This document shows positions 1 through 18,474 of a stretch of 34,106 nucleotides of DNA, piece by piece. The position numbers and the translations under genes are program-made. The stretch covers positions 1-34,106 of the forward strand of contig DATLUO010000118.1 in NCBI GenBank assembly GCA_035533075.1. The letters are read 5' to 3'. The DNA comes from Pirellulales bacterium. GTDB taxonomy: Bacteria > Planctomycetota > Planctomycetia > Pirellulales > JAICIG01. How positions within the stretch are numbered: the stretch's first letter is position 1; each line of letters begins with the position of its first letter. The notes under the pieces are model-generated. The model was not told the DNA's origin, made no database searches, and was given only the letters and a program-made list of their open reading frames with translations.

Positions 1-95
1 TGAACCCTGAACCCTGAACCCTGAACCCTGAACCCTGAACCCTGAACCCTGAACCCTGAACCCTGAACCCTGAACCCTGAACCCTGAACCCTGAA
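1..95. repeat. (TGAACCC)n heptamer tandem array
   Basis: Thirteen perfect copies of the heptamer TGAACCC run from the first base of the window to position 91, followed by a partial unit (TGAA). The array may continue to the left beyond the window. The reverse complement of the same unit recurs at 11971-12026 and degenerate units at 13101-13128. No function is visible; it lies about 135 bp upstream of the ANTAR regulator. Confidence 0.97.
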
Positions 96-2856: not shown

Positions 2857-3114
2857 ATGAGCAGAACCAGCATCCTGGACCGCTTTCTGGATCCCGTCGT
2901 CGAGTTCCTGCCTGCCGACGCGGCCCGCAAAATCATCGAGCTGCGCATCGATCCCGAGCTTCAGACCCGGCTGGACGAGCTCGCAGAAAAGGCCAACCAG
3001 GGAAATCTATCACCCGACGAGCGCAAAGAGTATGAGGGATACATCGAGGAGCTTGACATCATCGCGATCTTCAAGCTCAAGGCAAAGGCGGCTCTGCGGC
3101 GCCAGGGCTTATGA
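2857..3114 (+). CDS. Small helical protein paired with an HNH nuclease (copy 1)
   Basis: An 85-aa, highly charged, predicted mostly helical protein with no recognised domain. It is clearly a paralogue of the protein ending at 4241: both carry an ILxRxxDP start, an AAR-I-L segment, a LAEK-x2-QG-x-L centre, an E-rich stretch and a KA(K/R)xxLRR end. Its stop overlaps the start of the following HNH gene by ATGA, so the two are probably translationally coupled. The start ATG at 2857 has no obvious Shine-Dalgarno, and the possible -10 at 2845-2850 suggests leaderless expression. The repeated pairing with an HNH nuclease suggests an accessory, regulator or antitoxin-like role, but that is inference only. 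Confidence 0.75.
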   Translation: MSRTSILDRFLDPVVEFLPADAARKIIELRIDPELQTRLDELAEKANQGNLSPDERKEYEGYIEELDIIAIFKLKAKAALRRQGL

Positions 3115-3515
3115 GCGACCCTACCGTCCGCGGTTTGGTGTGGCGGCGAGCAGATGACAGGTGCGAATACTGCCGCCTGCCGCAGCACGCAATGGAGGCA
3201 ACGTTCCACGTTGAGCACATTCTTGCGTGCAGCATTCGCCGCCTGATGCCGACGCCCCGGAAAACCTGGCTTTGGCCTACCAGCACTGCAATCTGCACAA
3301 GGGTACAAATCTTAGCAGCATTGATCCTGCCAGCGGGCTTGTCGTTGCTCGGTATCACCCGCGTCGTGATGATTGGTCGCAGCATTTCGCGCTGCAGGGG
3401 GCACAAATCGTCGGACGGACGCCGACCGGCCGAGCCACGATTCGGTTGCTTCAGTTCAATACGCCCCCGCCGTTTGGAATTGCGCGAGGGGTTGATTGCT
3501 GAGGGCGAGTTTTGA
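3111..3515 (+). pseudogene. HNH endonuclease, two compensating frameshifts (copy 1)
   Basis: The gene starts in frame with MSDPTVRGLVWRRADDRCEY and reaches the first HNH half, CEYC...FHVEHI (to about 3218). It then needs a shift into another frame, which supplies PENLALAYQHCNLHKGTNL and the RYHPRRDDWSQHF segment (about 3227-3465). A second shift near the CCCCC run at 3464-3468 returns to the first frame and gives the expected end LREGLIAEGEF, matching the intact paralogue's FRAELMDEGVF. With both shifts ignored it would be a normal HNH protein of about 134 aa with all zinc and catalytic residues (CxxC, EH, N, CN). Two compensating indels can mean recent decay or base-calling errors near homopolymers. 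Its start overlaps the stop of the small gene upstream by ATGA. Confidence 0.8.
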
Positions 3516-3534
3516 ATGGCGCTATCTTCGTCTG

Positions 3535-3554
3535 CCACCAGATTTATCTGGTGG
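3535..3554. repeat. Short perfect hairpin
   Basis: CCACCAGAT and ATCTGGTGG form a perfect 9-bp inverted repeat with a 2-nt loop, 20 bp after the stop of the first HNH copy. No T-run follows, so a factor-independent terminator is not strongly supported, but the position fits a 3' end structure. Confidence 0.55.
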
Positions 3555-3690
3555 TTGACGGCTAACAGTCCCCATCATTCGTCAGCCGGCTTCAGCCGGG
3601 CTTCCGTGTTGGTTTTAGCCCTGTGCGCGGCGGCGGCGGCACGCACGGCACGGCAACCCAGGGAGGCAAAAAGGGCGGCGCGGGGCCATT

Positions 3691-3779
3691 CGTCTCTGGC
3701 GTCCAATCAGCGCCCCACCGGCATAAAGCCGGATGGTGGCTTGCCGAGCGTGAGCCAAACCGCGTCCGGAGAAAGGGTC
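3691..3779. repeat. Dispersed ~88-bp repeat, copy 1
   Basis: This stretch contains CCACCGGCATAAAGCCGG and GAGCGTGAGCCAAACC and is repeated nearly base for base at 4806-4893. It is truncated and split at 5186-5220 and 5311-5340. The surrounding gap (3516-3932) holds no convincing gene; a -10-like TATAAT is at 3885-3890, upstream of the next small gene. Confidence 0.75.
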
Positions 3780-3932
3780 AGAGGGCCTCGACAGGCCGCC
3801 GCCCTTTTTCAACAGGCTGTGTTAGGCCGCCGCTTAGGCGGAAGGAGAGCAACGATCGTGCTAGCCGGCGTGCTGACGAGGAACTATAATCGTGTCGAAA
3901 GAGCCTTCCTTTGTTGCAACGCCGGTTTTTTG

Positions 3933-4241
3933 ATGGCAACCGTCACACCATCGTCGAAGAGTGAGATGGCAATTCTGCGACGCGTTGTCGATCCTGCCCG
4001 ACCATACCTCTCCTGCGAGGCCGCGCGCGACATTCTGCGGCTACAGTTTTCGAAAAGCGATCGCCGCCGCATGAACCTGTTGGCGGAAAAGAATCGCCAA
4101 GGAAAGTTGACCGCCGGCGAGGAAGAGGAACTCGATAACTTCATTCGTGTCGGCCAAACCCTTGGCATTTTGCAGTCGAAGGCGCGGCGAACGCTGCGCC
4201 GCGCCGAAAAACTGAACGGCAAAAAATCGCGGCGCGAATGA
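3933..4241 (+). CDS. Small helical protein paired with an HNH nuclease (copy 2)
   Basis: A 102-aa protein from the ATG at 3933; an in-frame ATG at 3966 would give 91 aa and aligns better with the start of the 85-aa paralogue at 2857, so the start is uncertain. It is charged and probably helical throughout, and no known domain is recognised. Shared positions with the paralogue include the xxVDPxxxxL start, AARDIL, LLAEKNRQGKL and a basic end KARRTLRRAEK. A TATAAT at 3885-3890 may be its promoter's -10. Its stop overlaps the next gene's ATG (ATGA at 4238-4241), repeating the layout of copy 1, so the pair looks like a single functional unit. The role is unknown; an accessory or antitoxin-like partner of the nuclease is a guess from layout. 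Confidence 0.75.
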   Translation: MATVTPSSKSEMAILRRVVDPARPYLSCEAARDILRLQFSKSDRRRMNLLAEKNRQGKLTAGEEEELDNFIRVGQTLGILQSKARRTLRRAEKLNGKKSRRE

Positions 4242-4633
4242 GTCGAGCGTTGCGCAAAGAACTGCGTCGCCTTGCCGCCCAGCGCTGCGATTACTGTCGG
4301 ATGTCCGAAGCATTCGACCCCCTGCCATTCCAGGTCGACCATATCATTGCCGAGCAACACGGCGGCGCGACCGTACTGGAGAACCTTGCCTGGAGCCGCA
4401 TGCATTGCAACAAACGGAAGGGACCAAACATCGCGGGCATCGACGCCGATTCCGGTCAGTTGGCCGCTTTGTTTCATCCGCGCCGGCAGGCTGGGGACCG
4501 GCATTTTTACTGGGACGGCCCGGTCCTCCGCGGCCGCACGCGCTCGGCACGGGCGACGATTGCGGTTCTCGGCATCAACGATCCCGATTTCGTAGCGTTC
4601 CGAGCCGAGTTGATGGACGAAGGGGTATTCTAG
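4238..4633 (+). CDS. HNH endonuclease (copy 2, intact)
   Basis: A 131-aa stand-alone HNH nuclease. It has CDYC (Cys17, Cys20), the DH of the first histidine (Asp34-His35 in FQVDHIIAEQHGG), Asn49 in LENLAW and HCNKRKG (Cys57-Asn58), then the LFHPR and GRT...RATI segments common in this small HNH group. HNH enzymes cut DNA with one metal ion; the target here is unknown. It overlaps the upstream small gene by ATGA and is intact, unlike copy 1 at 3111. Such 130-aa HNH proteins are widespread in planctomycetes and cyanobacteria, and neither a homing nor a defence role has been clearly assigned to this group as far as I know. The palindrome-rich repeat zone starts just after its stop. Confidence 0.88.
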   Translation: MSRALRKELRRLAAQRCDYCRMSEAFDPLPFQVDHIIAEQHGGATVLENLAWSRMHCNKRKGPNIAGIDADSGQLAALFHPRRQAGDRHFYWDGPVLRGRTRSARATIAVLGINDPDFVAFRAELMDEGVF

Positions 4634-4672
4634 CCGGTCGTCCGCCACGCCCCGCTCCTTGCCTCGGTCGGG

Positions 4673-4825
4673 CGATGATTGACTGCCAGAGGCCGGCCCG
4701 GCCAAATGCCCCTTCCCTCAACGGGCTTTCGCCAGCCGCCGCGTCGCGGCGGTTGGCGGACGACCGTCGCGCGCACCGTCGACGGCGTAAGGGAGGTCGC
4801 CGCTTCGTCTCAGGCGGTCAATCAC
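4673..4825. repeat. Palindromic MITE-like element, copy 1
   Basis: The element is bounded by an imperfect terminal inverted repeat, GATTGACTGCCAGAG (from 4678) against CTCAGGCGGTCAATC (to 4823). It contains a central hairpin GCCAGCCGCCGCG-T-CGCGGCGGTTGGC (about 4731-4757). Its right 109 bp (4717-4825) is repeated at 5097-5205 with about nine differences. There is no open frame of note, so if mobile it would need a transposase elsewhere. The whole gap 4634-5648 holds no convincing gene. Confidence 0.6.
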
Positions 4826-4893
4826 AGCCCCACCGGCATAAAGCCGGGTGCTGGCTTGCGGAGCGTGAGCCAAACCACGTCAGGCGAAAGGAT
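4806..4893. repeat. Dispersed ~88-bp repeat, copy 2
   Basis: This is the second copy of the repeat at 3691-3779; it shares CCACCGGCATAAAGCCGG and GAGCGTGAGCCAAACC. It partly overlaps the right end of the palindromic element at 4673-4825, so the two repeats may be parts of one larger mobile or recombining unit. Confidence 0.75.
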
Positions 4894-5096: not shown

Positions 5097-5205
5097 CTCA
5101 ACGGGCGTCCGCCAGCCGCCGCGTCGCGGCGGCTGGCGGACGCACGTGGCGCGCACCGTCGACGGCGTAAGGGAGGTCGCCGCTTCGTCTCTGGCGGTCA
5201 ATCAC
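5097..5205. repeat. Palindromic element, copy 2 with perfect 18-bp hairpin
   Basis: This repeats 4717-4825. Its hairpin is perfect here: CGTCCGCCAGCCGCCGCG (5106-5123), one T, and the exact complement (5125-5142). The left terminal repeat present in copy 1 is absent. A run of eight C follows at about 5208-5215. Confidence 0.75.
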
Positions 5206-5460
5206 CGCCCCCCCCGGCACGAGCGCGAATGGTGGTGATCACTCGCGATGCGCGCGGCCAGCCCACCCATCCGCTATACCAACCGGCATGGAGGTCACAA
5301 TTCATGACTCCACGGCATCAAGCCGGATGGTGGCGTGAGGGCAATCACAGCCAATGCACCGGCGCGTCGCCGGCCGACCGAATCGGCGAATGGCAAGGCG
5401 CAGGCCGCGACGGTACGAATCCGGCACCGCCGCGCCGAACGAATAGCCGCCGTGAGGCGC

Positions 5461-5648: not shown

Positions 5649-6455
5649 ATGGCGCCTAAAAAAAAGCCACCACTGACGTTCGAGGTGCGGTTCGTAGCGG
5701 AAGGGCTCGTTCCCGAGGAAATACCCCTGCGTGCCGTGAGCGATGCCCTCTCGGCCGTGCAGGATCTGGCCAGCGGGCGCGATCCTGCGGAGCTGCCTCA
5801 GGTTCCCGCCGAAAAAAGAATTGCCCTAATGGATGTCCGCAGGGGCTCCGCCGTCTACAGTTGTGTCGCACGCGCCCCGGATGAGGCGACGGCGAACCTG
5901 GCTAGCGTCGGGGCCATGTTGTCCGGCGATGCCTCGTTCCCCATTGCCGACGAGCGGCTGATTGCGGCACTGCATCCGATTGAATCGCTAAGCAAGGTAG
6001 CTCGGTCGGTCAAGTGCAACCTCGAGGTGGCGCCAATCGGCCGACATGAGCGTCCGCTCTTGGTCGTCGAGCCGGATGCTTACGAACGGATTTCGCAGAG
6101 AGTGCTTCTGCGCGGTGACACGACCGTCGTGGGAGAGGTGGAGCGCGTCGGCGGCGCGACGAAGATGCGCTGTTTGTTGCGAGTTCCAGGGCATCGTCGC
6201 CTTCTCTATTGCGACTTGGAAAGTAAGGATCTTGTCCGCCGCTTGGGCCAGCATCTTTACGAACGGATAGCCGCGACGGGCACGGCCCAGTGGATCCACA
6301 GCACCTGGCAGATCTACCGCTTTGCGATTCGTGACTTCACGCAGCCCAAACTAGGCGATCCAAAACAAGCTATCGCCGAACTGCGCACCGCCGGCCTCGC
6401 TGCCTGGGACACCATCGCCGACCCGGAAGAATACATGAGGGAATTGCGTTCGTGA
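5649..6455 (+). CDS. Unknown protein paired with a PIN-domain nuclease
   Basis: A soluble 268-aa protein with no signal peptide or membrane helix. I do not recognise the family. It opens with a lysine-rich tail (MAPKKKPP), followed by a strand-rich stretch (LTFEVRFVAEGLVPEEIPLR) and alternating helix/strand regions, and it contains two Trp residues in WIHSTWQIYRF near 220. The ATG at 5649 is preferred over an in-frame TTG at 5628 because AAAGGTGG lies just upstream. The stop overlaps the GTG start of the PIN gene (GTGA), so the two are probably translated together. By layout it could be the antitoxin or targeting partner of the nuclease; at 268 aa it would be much larger than a typical VapB. 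Confidence 0.75.
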   Translation: MAPKKKPPLTFEVRFVAEGLVPEEIPLRAVSDALSAVQDLASGRDPAELPQVPAEKRIALMDVRRGSAVYSCVARAPDEATANLASVGAMLSGDASFPIADERLIAALHPIESLSKVARSVKCNLEVAPIGRHERPLLVVEPDAYERISQRVLLRGDTTVVGEVERVGGATKMRCLLRVPGHRRLLYCDLESKDLVRRLGQHLYERIAATGTAQWIHSTWQIYRFAIRDFTQPKLGDPKQAIAELRTAGLAAWDTIADPEEYMRELRS

Positions 6456-7000
6456 GCGTCGGCCTTGACTCGATGGTTCTGGTTTACGCGGGCATCGTGC
6501 CATCCAACCCGGCCACCCGCGCCGACGATTTTGCCGACCTTCAGGTCCGTGCGCACATTCTCTTGCACAAACTCGCACGGCGCGACGCGATCATCTACCT
6601 TCCCACGGTCGCAATCGCCGAACTGCTTGTGCCTGTTCCAAAGGCGCAAAAGGGGCTGCTCATCGCGAAGCTGGCCGAGAAGTTCGTTTGCCCGAATTTC
6701 GATCTACACGCCGCGGCCATTGCCGCGGAATTGTGGGCACAACACAAGCAGTTGCCGCACGACCTGCAATACAAGAACCGCCACCTGTTGAAAGCCGACA
6801 TTCTGATAACTTCCTCCGCCCGCGCGGCGGGCGCCGTCGAATTCTACAGCCACGACAAACGTTGTCGTGCTCTCGCCGCCATGATCATGCAGGCACACGA
6901 TCTGCCCAGGGAGGATCCGGAGGACATGTTCCTCAAGGGTGATTTACAACGTGGCGAGGTCGAACTCCCGGAGCGCTTCACGGGCCGCAAAAAGAAGTGA
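6452..7000 (+). CDS. PIN-domain ribonuclease-like protein (VapC-like)
   Basis: A 182-aa protein with the acidic set expected of a PIN nuclease: Asp6 (GLDSMVLVYAG), Glu57 (PTVAIAELL), Asp116 (LLKADILITSSA) and Asp135 (FYSHDKRC). PIN toxins of the VapC type cleave RNA with Mg2+, but this protein is longer than classical VapC (about 130-140 aa), with an extra basic C-terminal tail (ERFTGRKKK). The start is a GTG overlapping the upstream stop by GTGA, which supports a coupled two-gene module. It sits inside the island with HNH, ApeA and type IIG genes. Its partner is not a recognised VapB, so this may be a non-classical toxin-antitoxin pair or an RNA-cleaving defence pair. Confidence 0.82.
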   Translation: MSVGLDSMVLVYAGIVPSNPATRADDFADLQVRAHILLHKLARRDAIIYLPTVAIAELLVPVPKAQKGLLIAKLAEKFVCPNFDLHAAAIAAELWAQHKQLPHDLQYKNRHLLKADILITSSARAAGAVEFYSHDKRCRALAAMIMQAHDLPREDPEDMFLKGDLQRGEVELPERFTGRKKK

Positions 7001-7060: not shown

Positions 7061-8491
7061 CTAATTCGTATTTTGCGTCGGCGTTTTGATGCATTCTCGC
7101 TGCCTATTCCCAAGATAGATGTACTGTGCAAGCCGCGGATGATGAGTGACGCGCGCGACAATCAGTTGCTCATCGACCCCAACCCACCGCAAGAGCAATA
7201 GCCGCAAAAGCATCTGCAACTTGTCGCACGCCCAAGCTAAAGGAATTCCGCTCAAAGCTTTGGGGCGAAGCTCATCGGTCAGGTGCGTAAAGTAATGCCT
7301 CGTGTCAACGATTCCTGAAGTGAAATCGCTGGCTGACGCGCAAACGCACGCCACCATCTGTGGGCCCATTGAACCGAGCAATCCTGATAAGCGCTTGCGA
7401 AGCGAGTGTTCGTTTCCATACTTGATCCTGTTTTTCAGGCTCGCGCGATGGTCCTCGCCGACCTCGCTGGGGATCGCAGCCACCAAGGCGTTCTTCACGC
7501 GTTCGTAGTCCCCGTCCGCCATGTATGCTCCGGGCATTGTGGCGCGACTGAATGCCTCCAATGCCTGCGACAATATCAGGAACCGGCCACGATTTGAGGG
7601 GTCTGCACTTCGATGAGCGTCCCGAAACAGGTAAATCGCGCTCAACAATACATCACTTGCCGAGAACCACTTTTCCAGAATCGGTCCGAGGCGGTCCGCC
7701 AATTGCGAGAAATAGAATAACAGCACGGAGGACCGCAGGGCGTCGCGCTCTCTATGCGGTCCGCTCGACGTGTAAAGCAGCGGCCCATCACACGGGTCGC
7801 CGTTTGGCGTTACGCGAATCCAACATGCGTGGCAGGGCTCGTCTGTCAGCAGGGTCAGCAGGTCGCAAAGCCGCCACAACGTCTTCTGGAACCACTCCAA
7901 CGGTTGCGGCGAATCTGGAATAATATTGAAGTGGCTGCCGGCAATTGCCTCCGCCATATTGCGGTCTCCTTTCAGCCTAAATGTCGAATCGATCTCGAAC
8001 CGCGCCGAAATTGACGAGATTGCGAAGACCTGCCTTTCCGGCTTCGTATAGGTGAGCGTTGCCTGGTCTACAGCATCGGTTGCCTGCACTGCGAAAACGT
8101 TGCGGTCCAAAAACTCGTCTAGCTTCGAAGGCGACGCGGATACACCGTCGAATCGCAATTGGTCAAGACCTTCGAGGTGGTAGCCGACGACGAGATAGAT
8201 GCCGCTGCAAACCATCCAGGATCCCGTGAATGCCGTCACGAACGCACGAAACAACGTGCATTTCTGCCCGTCATCCAACACACCATGCAACCGATCAAAC
8301 CTGCGAAAATCGGAAGCAAGCACACCCATTTGTTCGACCGACACGGAACCCAGCGTGCCGTCCAGGCGGACACTAAGCTCATCCCGGCTGTATTTCAAGG
8401 AGCCTCCGACGACCGTTTCGGGAGCGTCAGGCAGCCACCAGCGGCCACCGCACTCAAAGGCCTCGAAAAGCACGACTTGGCGCTCTCGCAT
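7061..8491 (-). CDS. apeA: ApeA-like HEPN-domain anti-phage protein
   Basis: A 476-aa protein whose N-terminal part (about 1-200) matches the ApeA N-terminal domain: a GGRWWLPDAPETVVGG turn, then LKY and VRLDGTLG strands. The C-terminal half is a helical Apea-like HEPN domain ending in the nuclease motif R-x4-H (Arg398 to His403 in TRHYFTHL). HEPN R-x4-6-H proteins are RNases; ApeA is a known single-gene abortive-infection system in other bacteria. No membrane helix is seen. It lies 43 nt downstream of the type IIG restriction-modification gene on the same strand, so the two are likely co-transcribed. A later start is possible because there is no clear Shine-Dalgarno, but the N-terminal domain would be cut. 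The assignment rests on motif recognition without a profile search. Confidence 0.8.
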   Translation of the reverse strand: MRERQVVLFEAFECGGRWWLPDAPETVVGGSLKYSRDELSVRLDGTLGSVSVEQMGVLASDFRRFDRLHGVLDDGQKCTLFRAFVTAFTGSWMVCSGIYLVVGYHLEGLDQLRFDGVSASPSKLDEFLDRNVFAVQATDAVDQATLTYTKPERQVFAISSISARFEIDSTFRLKGDRNMAEAIAGSHFNIIPDSPQPLEWFQKTLWRLCDLLTLLTDEPCHACWIRVTPNGDPCDGPLLYTSSGPHRERDALRSSVLLFYFSQLADRLGPILEKWFSASDVLLSAIYLFRDAHRSADPSNRGRFLILSQALEAFSRATMPGAYMADGDYERVKNALVAAIPSEVGEDHRASLKNRIKYGNEHSLRKRLSGLLGSMGPQMVACVCASASDFTSGIVDTRHYFTHLTDELRPKALSGIPLAWACDKLQMLLRLLLLRWVGVDEQLIVARVTHHPRLAQYIYLGNRQRECIKTPTQNTN

Positions 8492-8534: not shown

Positions 8535-11500
8535 TCAATCGGGCAGAGGCTGAGCCGGGGAAAGAAACGGCATCCTTGGCGGCGCGGTGGCCCACATGAG
8601 GGCGACTTCGTCGGGGGTGAGACCGTAGGCGGCGTTCACGAGGTCGCTGAGGCGATGTTCCAGCGATAAGGCTTCGACCGCCAGACGCCGGGCCGGCTCG
8701 ATCGTCCGCTCGTATTCATCGCGAAGACCCCGCAACCCCGCCGCACTCAAGGGGTTCTTCCGCCCGCGGGCCTTCTGCACCTCGCCCACAAAGGCGTCGG
8801 AGTCGAGGTCGAAGGGCGATTGCAGCTTTTGGCTCGGCTTCTCGATTTCGTGCTCGACGCGGAGCCAGTCGAGGAGCGATCGCAGCGTGCCGTGCTCGTC
8901 GCGCGTCAGTTGGATGAGCTGGCCAACCGTGCGATTGGCTTCGGCGCGCTGCGTGTGGTCGGGCTGCGGGACCGGCAAATCGCGAACAAAATCCTTGATG
9001 TACCGCAATGCTTCGTCCTTCCCGTGCATCGCCGTGCGCCAGGCATACCACCACGTTATCGGCGCGTTGGCCACCGCGAGAATCCACGAATCATTGGATG
9101 GCAAGAAGTAGGCCGTGTTGTTGCAAAGTGTGCCCGACGAGTCGATTATCCATGCGGCTCGCCAGGTGATTTCTGGGTACATGATCTTCGCCTCGTCGAA
9201 GGACGCCCAATAGGCGCATGACCGCAGCTCCCACCAATACCGCCCGTGATCCTGGCGATTTAACAGCGCGCCGCGGAACTGCGATAGATGTGCGTGTATC
9301 GCCGGATACGTTTTCGCGAAGACGGCTTCCGCGCTATCGCCCTGGTCTGCCCACGGCCATTTGAAATTTTCGCTGGACCGCAGCACAAGCATCCACCAGC
9401 CGGCCCAGTCGGCGCTCCAGCGGCTGAAATCTTGGCCGCGGAGGTAAGGTTTTAGCAAAGCCGCACTGCCGGCGTGCGACGCGACGATCGCTTCTTTTGT
9501 CTGAGTATCAATGAGATATGCTTCGTTGAGCCCAGTCTTGATGCCCGATAGCGGTTCGACCGCCGCAAAGTCCGCCAGGCGCCGCCCACGCTCGACGAGC
9601 TTAGCCAAGAGATGGCCAACGCCTTGAGGCTCAAGCTGCCACGTTTCGGCACCGAGCTGCTCCAGTGGCAGCGCGACGCCTTCATGCTCAATCTGCCGAC
9701 TCAGGTCGTCGACGCGGAGTTGCTCGCGCGGGATGGTACAGAGCCGCGCGGTCTTGGGCTTCAGCGCGGCGGTCGGTTTACGCGCGACGATGATTGAGGG
9801 GAAGACGTCGGCGTCCTCAAAGATCTGCTTGGCGTGCCCGAAGTCGACGACCGATTCAATCCAGGCGCTGTCGGCAAAAAAGCGGCGGAGCGGCTCGCCG
9901 TAGCCGGATTTCATCCATTTGTTCGTTACGATCATCGAGAGCAGCCCGCCCGGCCGCAGCAGGCGCAGGCCGCGCTCGTAGAAGTAGACGTACAGATCGG
10001 CCATGCCGTGATACGAGCGATACGCGCGCTCCAGATACGGCTTGATGTCGCTCAACAACTCCTGACGCACGTAGGGCGGATTGCCCACCACCACGTCGAA
10101 GCCGCCTTCGCCGTTTCGGTCTCCAAAGATTTCGGGGAACTCGCCGTGCCAGTCGAAGGCGCGCAGGTATACGGCCGGGTCGCTGACGACGCTGTTGCCC
10201 ACGCGGATCGTGTGGTCGAGACTCGTCAGCACCTTGCCCCGCTCGGCCGTCTTGATCCAAAGACTCAGGCGGCAAATCTCGATCGCCTCTTCGTTCAGGT
10301 CGACGCCATACAAATTGTTTTCCAGGATGCGCTTGTCGAGGTCGAACAGCGTGCGGTGCCCACGAAGCTCTTGCAGCCGGTCGTTCGAGGCCTGATAGGC
10401 GGCATGCAGTTGGTCGAACGCTTCGATCAAGAACGCGCCGCTGCCACAGGCCGGGTCCAAAAGGCGGACCGAACCGAGCTCGTCCTGCCACGATTCCCAG
10501 AATTTGACCAACGCCGCGCGGGCCGCCGGCTTCAGGTCGTCGAGCTTGTAGACGTTCGGATCGGCCAGCGCCGTTCGGGCAGGACCCTTCTTCGCCGCCG
10601 CTTCTTCGTGCTCGCGCCGCAGCCGCGCGAAACGGTCTTTCAGCACGCCGCCCAACGCCTGCTCGATGATGTACCGCGTGATAAAGGCCGGCGTGTAGAA
10701 GGCGCCCTCTTTTTTGCGACGGGTGCGCGCGGTTTGGGGCGTTTTGGCCGTCATCGTGGGAAGTGACGGGCTGGGAAGCCCATCCTCCTGCGACGGACCA
10801 CTGACAACAGACAACTGACTCCTGAGCTTTTCCAGGTCGGAAATCGACTGCTCGAAAATGTGCCCGAGAATCTCGACGTCGATCAAGCTGCTGCCGGCGG
10901 CCGACTGCGCGGCCTGCGAGGCGGGACGATAGTCGTAGGCGCCCAAGTCGCGAAAGGAGCCGCACACGGCGTCGGACACGCGCAGACGGTCGAGCAGCGG
11001 GTCGGGAGCGAACAGCCCGCCGTTGTAGGCGTGGATGCCCAGCGCCGCGTTGCCGCCGTTGATCGAGTCGAACAGGCCGCGAAAATTGTCCCAGATGGGG
11101 CGCGGATGGTAGGGGTCGCGGTGCTCGTAGGCCTTGCGGATGGTTTCGGTCGGCAGCAGGCCGCGGTCTTCGCAGAAGGCGCAGAACAGTACGCGGTCTA
11201 ATAGCTTTTGCGTGGCGGCCAACACGTCGCCCCGCGGGGCGTCGGGATTGTCACGGGCAAGTTCCTGGAAGGCGCTCTGCCGCATGTCGGCGTAACGCTG
11301 GTAAAAATCGCGGGTCAGCTCGCGGCCCACGCGTTGCGATTCGTCCCAGAGCGAATAGAGATGGCATCGCCCGGCCGCCGGCACGACGCGCTCGGCCCCC
11401 AGCAGAAACACGAACCGCTTGAGGTGCGCCGCGTCGTCGGCCAACTGTTCGGTGTCGAAACGCTCGTAGGTGTGCTGGTCGGCGCCCTTGTAATACAAGC

Positions 11501-11966
11501 GGGTCTCACGCACCGACGTGACCACGATCCAGTCGCACGGTAGGTTGATGGCGTAGCGATAGGCTTGATCGACGGCCGACATGCGGCGGCCGGCGAAGGG
11601 GCGGTCGAGCGGATCGCGCGGGCCTTTGCCCTCCAGGGCCACCAGGTAGCGCTGCTCGCCGTTGAAATCGCCCAGCACCGCGTCGGCGAACTTTCCGTCG
11701 ACCTCGACGTGTTTTTCCCGCGAGAGCGTGTAGCGCGGCTGCCCGTCGGCCGGACGCGTGTAGCCCAACAGGCCGCAGAAAAAGTCGGTCAAGAAGTCGG
11801 GCAGCAGCTCCTGCTCTTTGAAGCTGTCTGCGCGGCGTGAAGAAAGCAACTCGGCCCAGTGACGCAGCTTGGGCGCGACGATTTCGACGCGGTGGGGCAA
11901 CGGAAAGGCCGCCAGGTGCGTGCGGAGAACGTCGGGACGGAACAGCGGCTTGGCTTCGAGGGGCAA
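8535..11966 (-). CDS. Type IIG restriction-modification enzyme (Eco57I-like)
   Basis: A single 1143-aa polypeptide with nuclease, methyltransferase and specificity parts. N-terminal: a PD-(D/E)xK-type site, Asp95 (KFADAVLG) and Glu112-x-Lys114 (ALEGKG). Middle: methyltransferase motif X (EGAFYTPAFITRYI), motif I at Asp504 (LLDPACGSGAFLIEAF) and motif IV at Asn629 (VVGNPPYV), the gamma class that makes N6-methyladenine. The C-terminal ~450 residues should hold the target recognition domain. The start is a TTG at 11966 directly abutting a GGGTTCA array; upstream in frame there is a TGA inside the array, and no Shine-Dalgarno is present, so the exact start is uncertain. A degenerate heptamer array lies inside the gene between the nuclease and methylase parts without breaking the frame. 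ApeA follows downstream. Confidence 0.92.
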   Translation of the reverse strand: MPLEAKPLFRPDVLRTHLAAFPLPHRVEIVAPKLRHWAELLSSRRADSFKEQELLPDFLTDFFCGLLGYTRPADGQPRYTLSREKHVEVDGKFADAVLGDFNGEQRYLVALEGKGPRDPLDRPFAGRRMSAVDQAYRYAINLPCDWIVVTSVRETRLYYKGADQHTYERFDTEQLADDAAHLKRFVFLLGAERVVPAAGRCHLYSLWDESQRVGRELTRDFYQRYADMRQSAFQELARDNPDAPRGDVLAATQKLLDRVLFCAFCEDRGLLPTETIRKAYEHRDPYHPRPIWDNFRGLFDSINGGNAALGIHAYNGGLFAPDPLLDRLRVSDAVCGSFRDLGAYDYRPASQAAQSAAGSSLIDVEILGHIFEQSISDLEKLRSQLSVVSGPSQEDGLPSPSLPTMTAKTPQTARTRRKKEGAFYTPAFITRYIIEQALGGVLKDRFARLRREHEEAAAKKGPARTALADPNVYKLDDLKPAARAALVKFWESWQDELGSVRLLDPACGSGAFLIEAFDQLHAAYQASNDRLQELRGHRTLFDLDKRILENNLYGVDLNEEAIEICRLSLWIKTAERGKVLTSLDHTIRVGNSVVSDPAVYLRAFDWHGEFPEIFGDRNGEGGFDVVVGNPPYVRQELLSDIKPYLERAYRSYHGMADLYVYFYERGLRLLRPGGLLSMIVTNKWMKSGYGEPLRRFFADSAWIESVVDFGHAKQIFEDADVFPSIIVARKPTAALKPKTARLCTIPREQLRVDDLSRQIEHEGVALPLEQLGAETWQLEPQGVGHLLAKLVERGRRLADFAAVEPLSGIKTGLNEAYLIDTQTKEAIVASHAGSAALLKPYLRGQDFSRWSADWAGWWMLVLRSSENFKWPWADQGDSAEAVFAKTYPAIHAHLSQFRGALLNRQDHGRYWWELRSCAYWASFDEAKIMYPEITWRAAWIIDSSGTLCNNTAYFLPSNDSWILAVANAPITWWYAWRTAMHGKDEALRYIKDFVRDLPVPQPDHTQRAEANRTVGQLIQLTRDEHGTLRSLLDWLRVEHEIEKPSQKLQSPFDLDSDAFVGEVQKARGRKNPLSAAGLRGLRDEYERTIEPARRLAVEALSLEHRLSDLVNAAYGLTPDEVALMWATAPPRMPFLSPAQPLPD
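10797..10824. repeat. Degenerate heptamer array inside the type IIG gene
   Basis: Four successive 7-mers on the plus strand (ACCACTG, ACAACAG, ACAACTG, ACTCCTG), consensus ACAACTG, read on the minus strand as part of the linker SQLSVVSGPS between ISDLEKL and the methylase motif X. It looks like an intergenic-type heptamer array captured in coding sequence. Confidence 0.65.
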
Positions 11967-13374: not shown

Positions 13375-13492
13375 GTGAATCAGGGCCGCGCCTTGCGTCC
13401 GCCGCCGAGGCTGTCGCCGCACGTCATTCGCTTCTGCGGCTTGCTGACGGCGCGTTTTTCGCTAAGATTGTTCATTCGGCGTTTCCTTGCTG

Positions 13493-13566
13493 GCCAGCAT
13501 AGCTTCAATTGGCAGAGCACCGCATTCGTAATGCGGGGGTTGTGGGTTCGACTCCCACTGCTGGCT
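13493..13566 (+). tRNA. tRNA-Thr (anticodon CGU)
   Basis: Full cloverleaf: acceptor arms GCCAGCA / TGCTGGC, a D stem GCTT/GAGC with one G-U pair, an anticodon stem CCGCA / TGCGG with loop TTCGTAA (anticodon CGT at 13527-13529), and a T arm GTGGG-TTCGACT-CCCAC. The discriminator is T at 13566, and the CCA end is not encoded. It reads ACG threonine codons. Confidence 0.95.
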
Positions 13567-13677
13567 CTCGGCCCGCGGTCGTCGCCTTGGTCGCGGGGGG
13601 CGTGTTCACGGGCCTATATTTTTGCCGCCTCGGTGAGGGCGGCGCCACGGTTCGAACTTGCATTGGGAGAAAGCGGA

Positions 13678-14997
13678 ATGCCACAAGGTTTGGAAGTAGA
13701 CCTCAAGCAAATGTTGCTGTCCGACGGCCAGCTCGATGCCGCCGCCGTTCGACGGATGATCGAGGCCCTGAGCGCCGACGCCACGAACTACCGGCCGCTG
13801 CGCGAGGCGGTGCAAGAATTGGAGAAGGCGGCGGAAGGTGCCTCGGCCAAATTGCGGCTGGGCGTGGGCTACTACTTGTTGGGCCGCTTCCGCCTGGCCG
13901 GGCAAACGCTCGCCGCGGTCCAAGGCGGCGTCGCCAAGTATTATCTCGGCAAATCGCACTTCGCCCTGGAAGACTACCGCGCCGCGATTCAAGACTATGA
14001 GGCCGCCGCCAAAGCCGGCTACGACGGCGATGCCAGCACCTTGGGGCGGGCCGAAGCCGTCCGCTACACGGGCGACGCACGCGCCGCCTTGAAGGTGCTC
14101 GACAGCCTCTCCGGCGCGGTCGAGCAGACCGCCGACTATCTCTATCAACGCGGCGCCACCGTGGCCGCCATCGGCGGAAACCCCAGTGAAGTCGTGGCCT
14201 TGCTGGAACGCGCCGTCGAGACCGATCCCAAGCACGCCGGCGCCCTGTTTGCCCTGGCCGTCGAAAACGACCGCCGCGGAAACGATGAGACCGCGCTCGA
14301 TCTCTATCAACGGTCGACCTCGCGGTTTCCCGCCCATCTTGGCGCCCTGTTGAACCTGGCCATCCTCTACGAAGACCGCCAGCAATACGAGAAGGCGCGC
14401 CAATGCTACCTGCGCATCCTCGACGCCTATCCCAATCACCCTCGCGCCCGGCTGTTCTTCAAAGACGCCCAGGCGTCGGGCGAAATGTTCTTCGATGAAG
14501 ACGCCCAACGCCGCCGCGACCGGCTGGGCCAGGTGCTCACGATGCCCGTGACCGATTTCGAACTCTCGGTCCGCAGCCGCAATTGTCTGCAAAAGATGGG
14601 GCTGTTGACGTTGGGCGACCTGGCCCGCGCCACCGAGCAAGAACTGCTGTCGAGCAAGAACTTCGGCGAGACCTCGCTGGTGGAAATCAAGGAGATGATG
14701 GCCTCCAAGGGCCTCAGCTTGGGCCAGTTCGCCGGCGAAAAGCGCGTGCCCGAAGTCACCTACGAGCCCGAAGTGATGTCGCCCGACGAACAGGCCCTGC
14801 TCAGCAAGCCGATCGCCGATCTGAACCTTTCCGTGCGTGCCCGAAAGTGTATGATCCGGCTGGGCATCAGCACCATCGGCGAGCTCGTGCGGCGGACGCA
14901 AGACGAGTTGTTGGAGTGCAAGAACTTCGGCGTCACCAGCTTGAACGAAGTCCGCGACAAGCTGACCGTACACGGGTTGAAGCTGCGCGGTGACTGA
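13678..14997 (+). CDS. TPR protein with two RNA-polymerase alpha-CTD-like domains
   Basis: A 439-aa protein. About residues 50-270 are tetratricopeptide repeats ([40 protein letters not shown]). The C-terminal part holds two copies of the helix-hairpin-helix fold known from the RNA polymerase alpha subunit: [20 protein letters not shown] ... [15 protein letters not shown], and [20 protein letters not shown] ... [13 protein letters not shown]. In true alpha this domain binds promoter UP elements and activators; here no alpha N-terminal domain is present. It could therefore contact DNA or transcription factors while the TPRs bind proteins; this role is inference. The ATG at 13678 follows GGGAGA. 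The stop overlaps the tgt start by 8 bp, so the two are co-translated. Similar TPR/alpha-CTD proteins are familiar in planctomycetes. Confidence 0.88.
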
Positions 14998-17989: not shown

Positions 17990-18226
17990 ATGACGATCTT
18001 GACGGTTGATTCAGGGACGTTATCCCAACTCGGCAACCTCGCTGATCTCACCGAGATCCGAGACGAATCGGGCCGCGTGCTAGGGTATTTTCACCCCGTG
18101 ACGGCGACCACTGGTTCTGGTGGAAACGTTCGTCGGTCACCCTTTGCCGATGACGAGTTGCGCCAGCGCCAGCAGCAGCGTACCGGAAAGCCTCTATCCG
18201 AGGTGCTTGCAAGACTCCCGTCATGA
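17990..18226 (+). CDS. Antitoxin-like protein
   Basis: A 78-aa protein. The N-terminal half contains EIRDESGRVLGYFHP, a short strand-turn-strand motif also seen twice in the protein at 22638; the C-terminal half is a charged helix (DDELRQRQQQRTG) ending in PLSEVLARL. The stop overlaps the next start by ATGA, and the downstream gene is a ParE/RelE-like toxin, so it is probably the cognate antitoxin, with the C-terminal helix wrapping the toxin. No DNA-binding motif is obvious. A good promoter is at 17910-17938. Confidence 0.75.
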   Translation: MTILTVDSGTLSQLGNLADLTEIRDESGRVLGYFHPVTATTGSGGNVRRSPFADDELRQRQQQRTGKPLSEVLARLPS

Positions 18227-18474
18227 GATTCACCGTCATTTGGACCATGGCGGCGGAACAAGATCTGGCTGCAATTTGGCTTGACGCCGTCGACCGCGAT
18301 GGAGTTTCATCCGTGGCGAACACCATCGATCAGCTCTTGAAGCAGAATCCGCTTGCTATCGGCGAGGTTCGTTTCGACACCGTCCGAAGTCTCGCCGTCG
18401 CGCCGCTTGGCGTGGATTTTGAGGTGCTTGAACAGGATCGCCTGGTGTACGTCTTAAGCGTCTGGGAGGCATGA
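18223..18474 (+). CDS. ParE/RelE-family toxin-like protein
   Basis: An 83-aa protein with the usual layout of the fold: strand (MRFTVIWTMAAEQDLAAIWL, the helix-rich opening typical of ParE/RelE), two helices, then strands with VRSLAVAPLGVDFEVLEQD and a terminal RLVYVLSVW. Such toxins either cut mRNA in the ribosome or poison gyrase; key residues are not conserved enough to say which. It is translated from an ATG overlapping the antitoxin stop (ATGA). Confidence 0.78.
   Translation: MRFTVIWTMAAEQDLAAIWLDAVDRDGVSSVANTIDQLLKQNPLAIGEVRFDTVRSLAVAPLGVDFEVLEQDRLVYVLSVWEA

What the first reader, a model, noticed from the sequence alone, without database searches (positions are those of the whole stretch)
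2857..4633. Duplicated two-gene cassette: small helical protein + HNH nuclease, overlapping by ATGA
Seen: two consecutive cassettes, each a small charged helical gene (85 and 91-102 aa) whose stop overlaps the ATG of a ~131-aa HNH gene. The small proteins are recognisable paralogues, as are the nucleases. I know no named system of this shape. The pairing and coupling suggest a functional unit such as a toxin-antitoxin, defence or homing module.
Basis: partly seen in the sequence, partly recalled or inferred. Interest (0 to 1): 0.62.

Follow-up and report, generated by a model that had tools for sequence, protein, structure and literature searches.

The report
PtuB-like nuclease with antitoxin-like partner gene
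The two gene pairs are copies of a widespread, unnamed two-gene unit in which a small helical protein almost always precedes a PtuB-like DNA/RNA-cutting enzyme; its inheritance pattern is that of a toxin with its antidote, although both nucleases in this window look broken.

Summary
The two cassettes are real. Each is a small helical gene whose stop overlaps the start of an HNH gene (ATGA). One correction: the first HNH is frameshifted, and the second has lost a zinc ligand (C54R) and a Trp (W86G) that are otherwise invariant, so both window nucleases look dead while both small genes stay open.

The unit is general. I collected 202 intact, non-edge HNH loci from Planctomycetota, Cyanobacteria, Acidobacteriota, Verrucomicrobiota, Chloroflexota and plasmids. 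Of these, 194 have a recognised small gene directly upstream, and only two lack an intact small gene altogether. No third gene is shared. The HNH matches PtuB (Septu/retron I-A) by sequence (23/23) and predicted fold, but without PtuA. The small protein belongs to no Pfam or NCBIfam family: its C-terminal helical hairpin is constant, while its N-terminus varies and sometimes resembles known antitoxins (RHH, RelB/Phd), below curated cut-offs. Lone small genes are common; lone nucleases are almost absent.

Best reading: a new family of two-gene toxin-antitoxin-like modules, an HNH toxin neutralised by a modular hairpin antitoxin (confidence 0.68). Toxicity, neutralisation and target are untested. 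I found no paper naming it.

The parts
2857..3114 (+). Small gene 1 (85 aa), helical, antitoxin-like; open
   Evidence: Translation; hairpin HMM E 3e-24; paralogues in the genome
3111..3515 (+). HNH gene 1, pseudogene: only its N-terminal piece (about 3111-3230) is in this frame; starts in the small gene's stop (ATGA)
   Evidence: profile positions 4-39 in this frame
3227..3502 (+). C-terminal piece of HNH 1 in another frame (frameshift at about 3225-3245)
   Evidence: profile positions 44-116; 44% identical to HNH 2
3933..4241 (+). Small gene 2 (102 aa from ATG 3933; 91 aa from ATG 3966), helical, antitoxin-like; open
   Evidence: hairpin HMM E 4e-29; longer start fits relative L104
4238..4633 (+). 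HNH gene 2 (131 aa), PtuB-like; open but with C54R (codon 4397-4399) and W86G (codon 4493-4495); start overlaps small gene 2 (ATGA)
   Evidence: Pfam HNH E 1.6e-8; PADLOC PtuB E 5e-7; residue counts

Best explanation
Each cassette is (or was) a two-gene toxin-antitoxin-like module of a family I found no name for. The downstream gene encodes a stand-alone PtuB-like HNH nuclease, the toxin. The upstream, translationally coupled gene encodes a small antitoxin-like protein: its conserved C-terminal helical hairpin binds and silences the nuclease, and its exchangeable N-terminal part serves dimerisation and, in the RHH-like or RelB/Phd-like forms, probably autoregulatory DNA binding. If the small protein is lost or degraded, the nuclease is freed and cuts an essential nucleic acid; by analogy with PtuAB either tRNA or DNA. 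SHOWN (computationally): near-obligate pairing, gene order and coupling; co-inheritance of partners; PtuB-like sequence and predicted fold; constant hairpin with variable N-terminus; frequent solo small genes against almost no solo nucleases; plasmid carriage. INFERRED: toxicity, neutralisation by direct binding, target, autoregulation. In this window the modules look like relics: both nucleases are damaged and both small genes are open.
For: Pairing: 77 of 80 loci found by the HNH alone, 194 of 202 intact loci overall, spacing -28 to +32 bases; -4 overlap in 27 of 77. Loss asymmetry: at least 21 broken HNHs with an intact small gene against 2 the other way, two-sided p 6.6e-5; 25 of 69 small genes without an intact HNH. 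Co-inheritance within genomes: Spearman 0.38 against a null of 0.11 +/- 0.07, 0 of 1000. Nuclease: PtuB models match 23 of 23; PtuB chains Z 8.0-8.4, next 4.4. N-termini hitting RelB-like (5 of 5), RHH_5, FitA-RHH, RHH_1, PhdYefM, sub-threshold. Plasmid carriage beside MazF or MntA/HepT-like and ParAB genes. No third conserved gene. Fused-pair model pTM 0.77. Orphan antitoxins are abundant in known TA families (PMC7192599).
Against: No experiment. PtuB of retron-Eco7 is not toxic without PtuA (PMC11555353). N-terminal antitoxin matches are below curated cut-offs and PDB profile searches did not confirm them; the predicted cyanobacterial small protein shows no clear RHH. The window's own small proteins have no recognisable DNA-binding domain. 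Solo small genes next to rsmH in three genomes (L367, L369, L374) may have another role.
Confidence: 0.68

Rival explanations
1. Obligate two-subunit nuclease: the small protein is an activating or targeting subunit (replacing PtuA), and the pair together forms a defence or restriction effector; neither part is toxic alone.
For: PtuB needs PtuA for toxicity (PMC11555353); near-perfect pairing; PtuB is a defence nuclease; in this window ApeA and a type IIG enzyme lie close by.
Against: An activator would not be expected to outlive its nuclease so often nor to carry antitoxin-like N-termini. Neighbours elsewhere are mostly ordinary genes.
Confidence: 0.18
2. Host regulatory or DNA-repair pair with a housekeeping role, not addictive.
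For: Mostly chromosomal, often between ordinary genes; weak hairpin resemblance to UPF0291/YnzC (E 5e-5).
Against: Very patchy (41 of 146 cyanobacteria; about ten of 199 planctomycetes), multi-copy, plasmid-borne, frequently decayed.
Confidence: 0.09
3. Homing or mobile cassette: the HNH promotes copying of the pair into new sites.
For: Multi-copy genomes, tandem copies here, a partial duplicate at C262 with the same flanking repeats, neighbouring integrases on plasmids.
Against: No shared insertion site or neighbour; no phage or viral relative; homing does not need a small partner or explain its survival without the HNH.
Confidence: 0.05

Closest known systems
PtuB of Septu (PtuAB) and of retron I-A (Eco7/Ec78)
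   Same: HNH nuclease; sequence models match 23 of 23 members; predicted fold aligns over 121-130 residues at Z 8.0-8.4.
   Different: No PtuA ATPase and no retron; the partner is a small helical protein encoded upstream; no conserved third gene.
Type II toxin-antitoxin modules (RelBE, Phd-Doc, VapBC and others)
   Same: Two small coupled genes, small partner first, patchy multi-copy and plasmid distribution, solo antitoxin-like genes, N-termini that sometimes resemble RHH or RelB/Phd domains.
   Different: The nuclease is HNH/PtuB-like, a toxin class not listed among the type II families of PMC2701414 or PMC4963859; no toxicity data; the C-terminal hairpin is not a catalogued antitoxin domain.
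NetFlax node D29-D51 (PtuAB-like, PMC10440598)
   Same: D51 is a PtuB-like HNH in a predicted toxin-antitoxin-like network.
   Different: Its partner D29 is an AAA ATPase, not a small helical protein.
UPF0291 / YnzC (DUF896)
   Same: Similar short hairpin (profile E 5e-5 to PDB 3bhp; weak Foldseek match).
   Different: Below the Pfam cut-off in every member; no HNH partner known to me; probably only a shared simple fold.

Membership tests
Type II toxin-antitoxin | Two small adjacent co-directional genes, closely spaced or overlapping, antitoxin usually first | tested here: met
   194 of 202 intact loci, spacing -28 to +32; ATGA in the window
Type II toxin-antitoxin | Toxin cannot persist without antitoxin; antitoxin can persist alone | tested here: met
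   At least 21 against 2, p 6.6e-5; 25 of 69 small genes solo. A genomic proxy only
Type II toxin-antitoxin | Antitoxin has a DNA-binding domain and a toxin-binding domain | tested here: inconclusive
   Sub-threshold RHH and RelB/Phd matches in some classes; none in the window's small proteins; PDB profiles negative
Type II toxin-antitoxin | Toxin expressed alone stops growth and antitoxin protein neutralises it by binding | not testable with these tools
   Needs expression assay; the fused model pTM 0.77 is only suggestive of contact
Septu (PtuAB) | PtuB-like HNH nuclease | tested here: met
   PADLOC PtuB 23 of 23 members, best E 3.9e-13; Z 8.0-8.4
Septu (PtuAB) | Adjacent PtuA ATPase | tested here: not met
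   Immediate partner is the small gene; no recurring neighbour family at 80 loci; no ATPase beside the window cassettes
Retron I-A | Reverse transcriptase and msr-msd with PtuAB | tested here: not met
   No recurring third gene among neighbours of 80 loci; no RT beside the window cassettes
HNH homing endonuclease | Located in an intron, intein or at a fixed target site, often in phages | tested here: inconclusive
   Neighbours differ between loci; none in phages or viral contigs; cleavage site not testable
UPF0291 (DUF896) | Pfam PF05979 gathering score | tested here: not met
   Best E 0.0016; 6 of 27 members match weakly; window member 13.4 bits against cut-off 24.2

The most novel reading that the evidence does not exclude
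A large, unnamed toxin-antitoxin superfamily spanning at least five phyla in which the Septu/retron nuclease PtuB is free of PtuA and under a hairpin antitoxin that swaps N-terminal regulatory domains (RHH-like, RelB/Phd-like and others) while keeping the toxin-binding hairpin; possibly the evolutionary source of PtuB effectors.
Probability: 0.4. Interest if true: 0.75.

Novelty: new variant of a known kind. Interest (0 to 1): 0.62.

Why it matters
If true, it adds an HNH/PtuB-type toxin to the toxin-antitoxin repertoire. It would explain many 'HNH endonuclease' plus 'hypothetical protein' pairs in cyanobacterial and planctomycete genomes, and give a minimal two-gene system in which the PtuB nuclease (reported targets: tRNA or DNA) can be studied without PtuA or a retron. 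It would also link a toxin-antitoxin module to the evolutionary origin of a phage-defence effector.

Tried and rejected
Literature: eight searches found no description of the pair; NetFlax mentions only PtuAB-like D29-D51. Subscription papers are not covered.

Pfam and NCBIfam for the small protein: nothing above cut-off.

Fold search of the cyanobacterial small protein: no confident match, weak YnzC hairpin; the N-terminal part of that model is helical and does not show a ribbon-helix-helix.

PDB profile search of the N-termini: no convincing antitoxin hit.

Phage origin: no relative in phage records or viral contigs.

Conserved defence neighbourhood: rejected as a general rule. Neighbours are heterogeneous, mostly ordinary genes; the ApeA and type IIG genes here are local.

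Most of the 147 of 199 planctomycete genomes with an HNH match carry a different, generic, longer HNH protein (E about 1e-9 to 1e-13), which I excluded from the family.

Programmed frameshift in HNH 1: not favoured; nearly all relatives are in one frame, and other copies in this genome show several kinds of decay.

Full report
WHAT IS IN THE WINDOW. Two co-oriented cassettes lie at 2857-3515 and 3933-4633. Each is a small gene (85 aa; 91 or 102 aa) whose stop codon overlaps the ATG of an HNH gene as ATGA. The first HNH is broken: its N-terminal piece and its C-terminal part lie in different frames that part at about 3225-3245. The second HNH is open, but it alone among 194 intact relatives has Arg instead of the zinc-ligand Cys54 and Gly instead of Trp86 (193 of 194 conserved at each). 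Both small genes are open. The window is therefore best read as two decaying copies.

COPIES IN THE SAME GENOME. The genome (G000, 8.5 Mb) has about ten copies. Besides the window's second copy, C236, C247, C114, C38 and C239 have both genes open; C38 and C239 have upstream small genes with different N-termini. C152 has both genes but an HNH with Cys20 changed to Arg. In C222 and C184 the small gene is intact and the HNH is mostly or wholly deleted. C236b and C256 keep only HNH fragments. C262 is a 97.8%-identical copy of part of cassette 1 with an internal deletion, followed by the same intergenic repeats.

GENERALITY. A database scan by the HNH alone gave 80 loci in Planctomycetota, Acidobacteriota, Verrucomicrobiota, Chloroflexota, Cyanobacteria and records labelled Proteobacteria. 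The small family, built from four planctomycete sequences, is found directly upstream in 77; two of the other three are cut by the contig start. With plasmids and whole cyanobacterial genomes (41 of 146 positive, up to 8 copies) the set is 202 intact, non-edge HNHs, of which 194 have a recognised small gene upstream at -28 to +32 bases. Inspection of the other eight found three with a small gene starting at a non-ATG codon (L147, L251, L314), three separated by an insertion (IS4 in Rippkaea, L181; L244; L259, with a small gene 1.1 kb upstream), and two with a broken small gene (L276 nonsense, L291 deletion). Nearest neighbours at 80 loci share no family, so the unit is two genes.

ASYMMETRY OF LOSS. 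Of 29 broken, non-edge HNHs at least 21 keep an intact small gene, against 2 intact HNHs without an intact small gene (two-sided sign test p 6.6e-5; one-sided 4e-4 if the HNH is 57% of the mutational target). From the small side, 25 of 69 hits in cyanobacteria have no intact HNH; several carry remnants (L359, L361, L363, L371, L373), and the rest lie beside unrelated genes. Further cases are Nostoc C052 (small gene alone) and Anabaena cylindrica (HNH truncated behind an inserted IscB element). Caveats: loci were ascertained by homology, relatives are not fully independent, and three insertion-split loci were counted on neither side.

CO-INHERITANCE. Within 25 genomes holding two or more cassettes, small-protein distances correlate with HNH distances (Spearman 0.38). 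Shuffling partners within genomes gives 0.11 +/- 0.07 and never reaches it in 1000 trials.

THE NUCLEASE. Pfam HNH is above cut-off. All 23 members of a diverse alignment match PADLOC PtuB models (best 3.9e-13), the window's over nearly its whole length. The predicted fold aligns with PtuB of retron Ec78/Eco7 and Septu over 121-130 residues at Z 8.0-8.4, rmsd 2.3-3.2; the best non-PtuB chain scores 4.4. In retron-Eco7, PtuAB degrades tRNA-Tyr and is toxic only as a pair (PMC11555353); a Septu also cleaves tRNA-Tyr (PMC13096335).

THE SMALL PROTEIN. No Pfam or NCBIfam family passes its cut-off. It ends in a helical hairpin (roughly R-x2-E-L-x2-K-x3-G-x-L-T-x2-E-x2-E-L), weakly like YnzC. One hairpin HMM finds most small-protein classes, while the N-terminus is of many kinds. 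Some resemble antitoxins: 'VQYITNxxGERVGVLLxLExY' forms match RelB-like in 5 of 5 and PhdYefM in one; 'ITLxLPDEVYxxAE' forms match RHH_5, FitA-like RHH, RHH_1 and DUF6364. All are below curated cut-offs, and PDB sequence profiles did not confirm them. A class with 'RAIAGDKQSxGKTAGQALDAL' (L258, L260) also occurs in this genome at C239; its HicB-like look is only my reading by eye.

COMPLEX. I read through the stop codon of in-frame pairs to make one chain (20-row alignment). AlphaFold2 gives pLDDT 85.8 and pTM 0.77 with a disordered linker at 91-104. That is higher than I would expect for two unoriented domains, but coordinates and a mismatched control were not available, so it is suggestive only.

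CONCLUSION. The best explanation is an unnamed toxin-antitoxin-like module with a PtuB-like nuclease and a modular hairpin antitoxin (0.68). The main rival is an obligate two-subunit nuclease (0.18). It works like a type II module; formal membership awaits toxicity and neutralisation assays. It is not Septu or a retron, since PtuA and reverse transcriptase are missing.

Noticed in passing
window 5649-7000 (+): Another coupled pair (268-aa hypothetical, then a PIN-like gene overlapping as GTGA); PIN match E 0.0018, below cut-off. A second possible toxin-antitoxin pair next to the cassettes.
   Followed up: partly
window 7061-8491 (-): ApeA-type anti-phage protein (ApeA_NTD1 E 1e-38, HEPN_Apea E 3e-23).
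   Followed up: yes
window 8535-11966 (-): Type IIG restriction enzyme-methyltransferase (PADLOC E 5e-117), so the left third of the window is locally a defence region.
   Followed up: yes
window 17990-18474 (+): Small gene overlapping a ParE/RelE-like gene (ParE E 6e-4, just below cut-off): a probable further toxin-antitoxin pair.
   Followed up: partly
window 3689-3755, 4640-4870, 5097-5219: Intergenic repeats flanking the cassettes, in 23 places in the genome, several of them clustered (C262, C145, C118, C244).
   Followed up: partly
window 1-94: The contig starts in a tandem array of the heptamer TGAACCC, probably the reason for the assembly break.
   Followed up: no
window 13375-14997 (+): Protein joining TPR repeats to two RNA polymerase alpha C-terminal-like domains.
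   Followed up: no
L367, L369, L374: Solo small genes lie directly before what looks like rsmH in three cyanobacterial genomes; a conserved solo position may mean a role without the nuclease.
   Followed up: no
L178 3004-5312; L373: Mobile elements interrupt the pair: an IscB element between small gene and truncated HNH in Anabaena cylindrica, and apparent group II intron reverse-transcriptase sequence after a truncated HNH in L373.
   Followed up: partly
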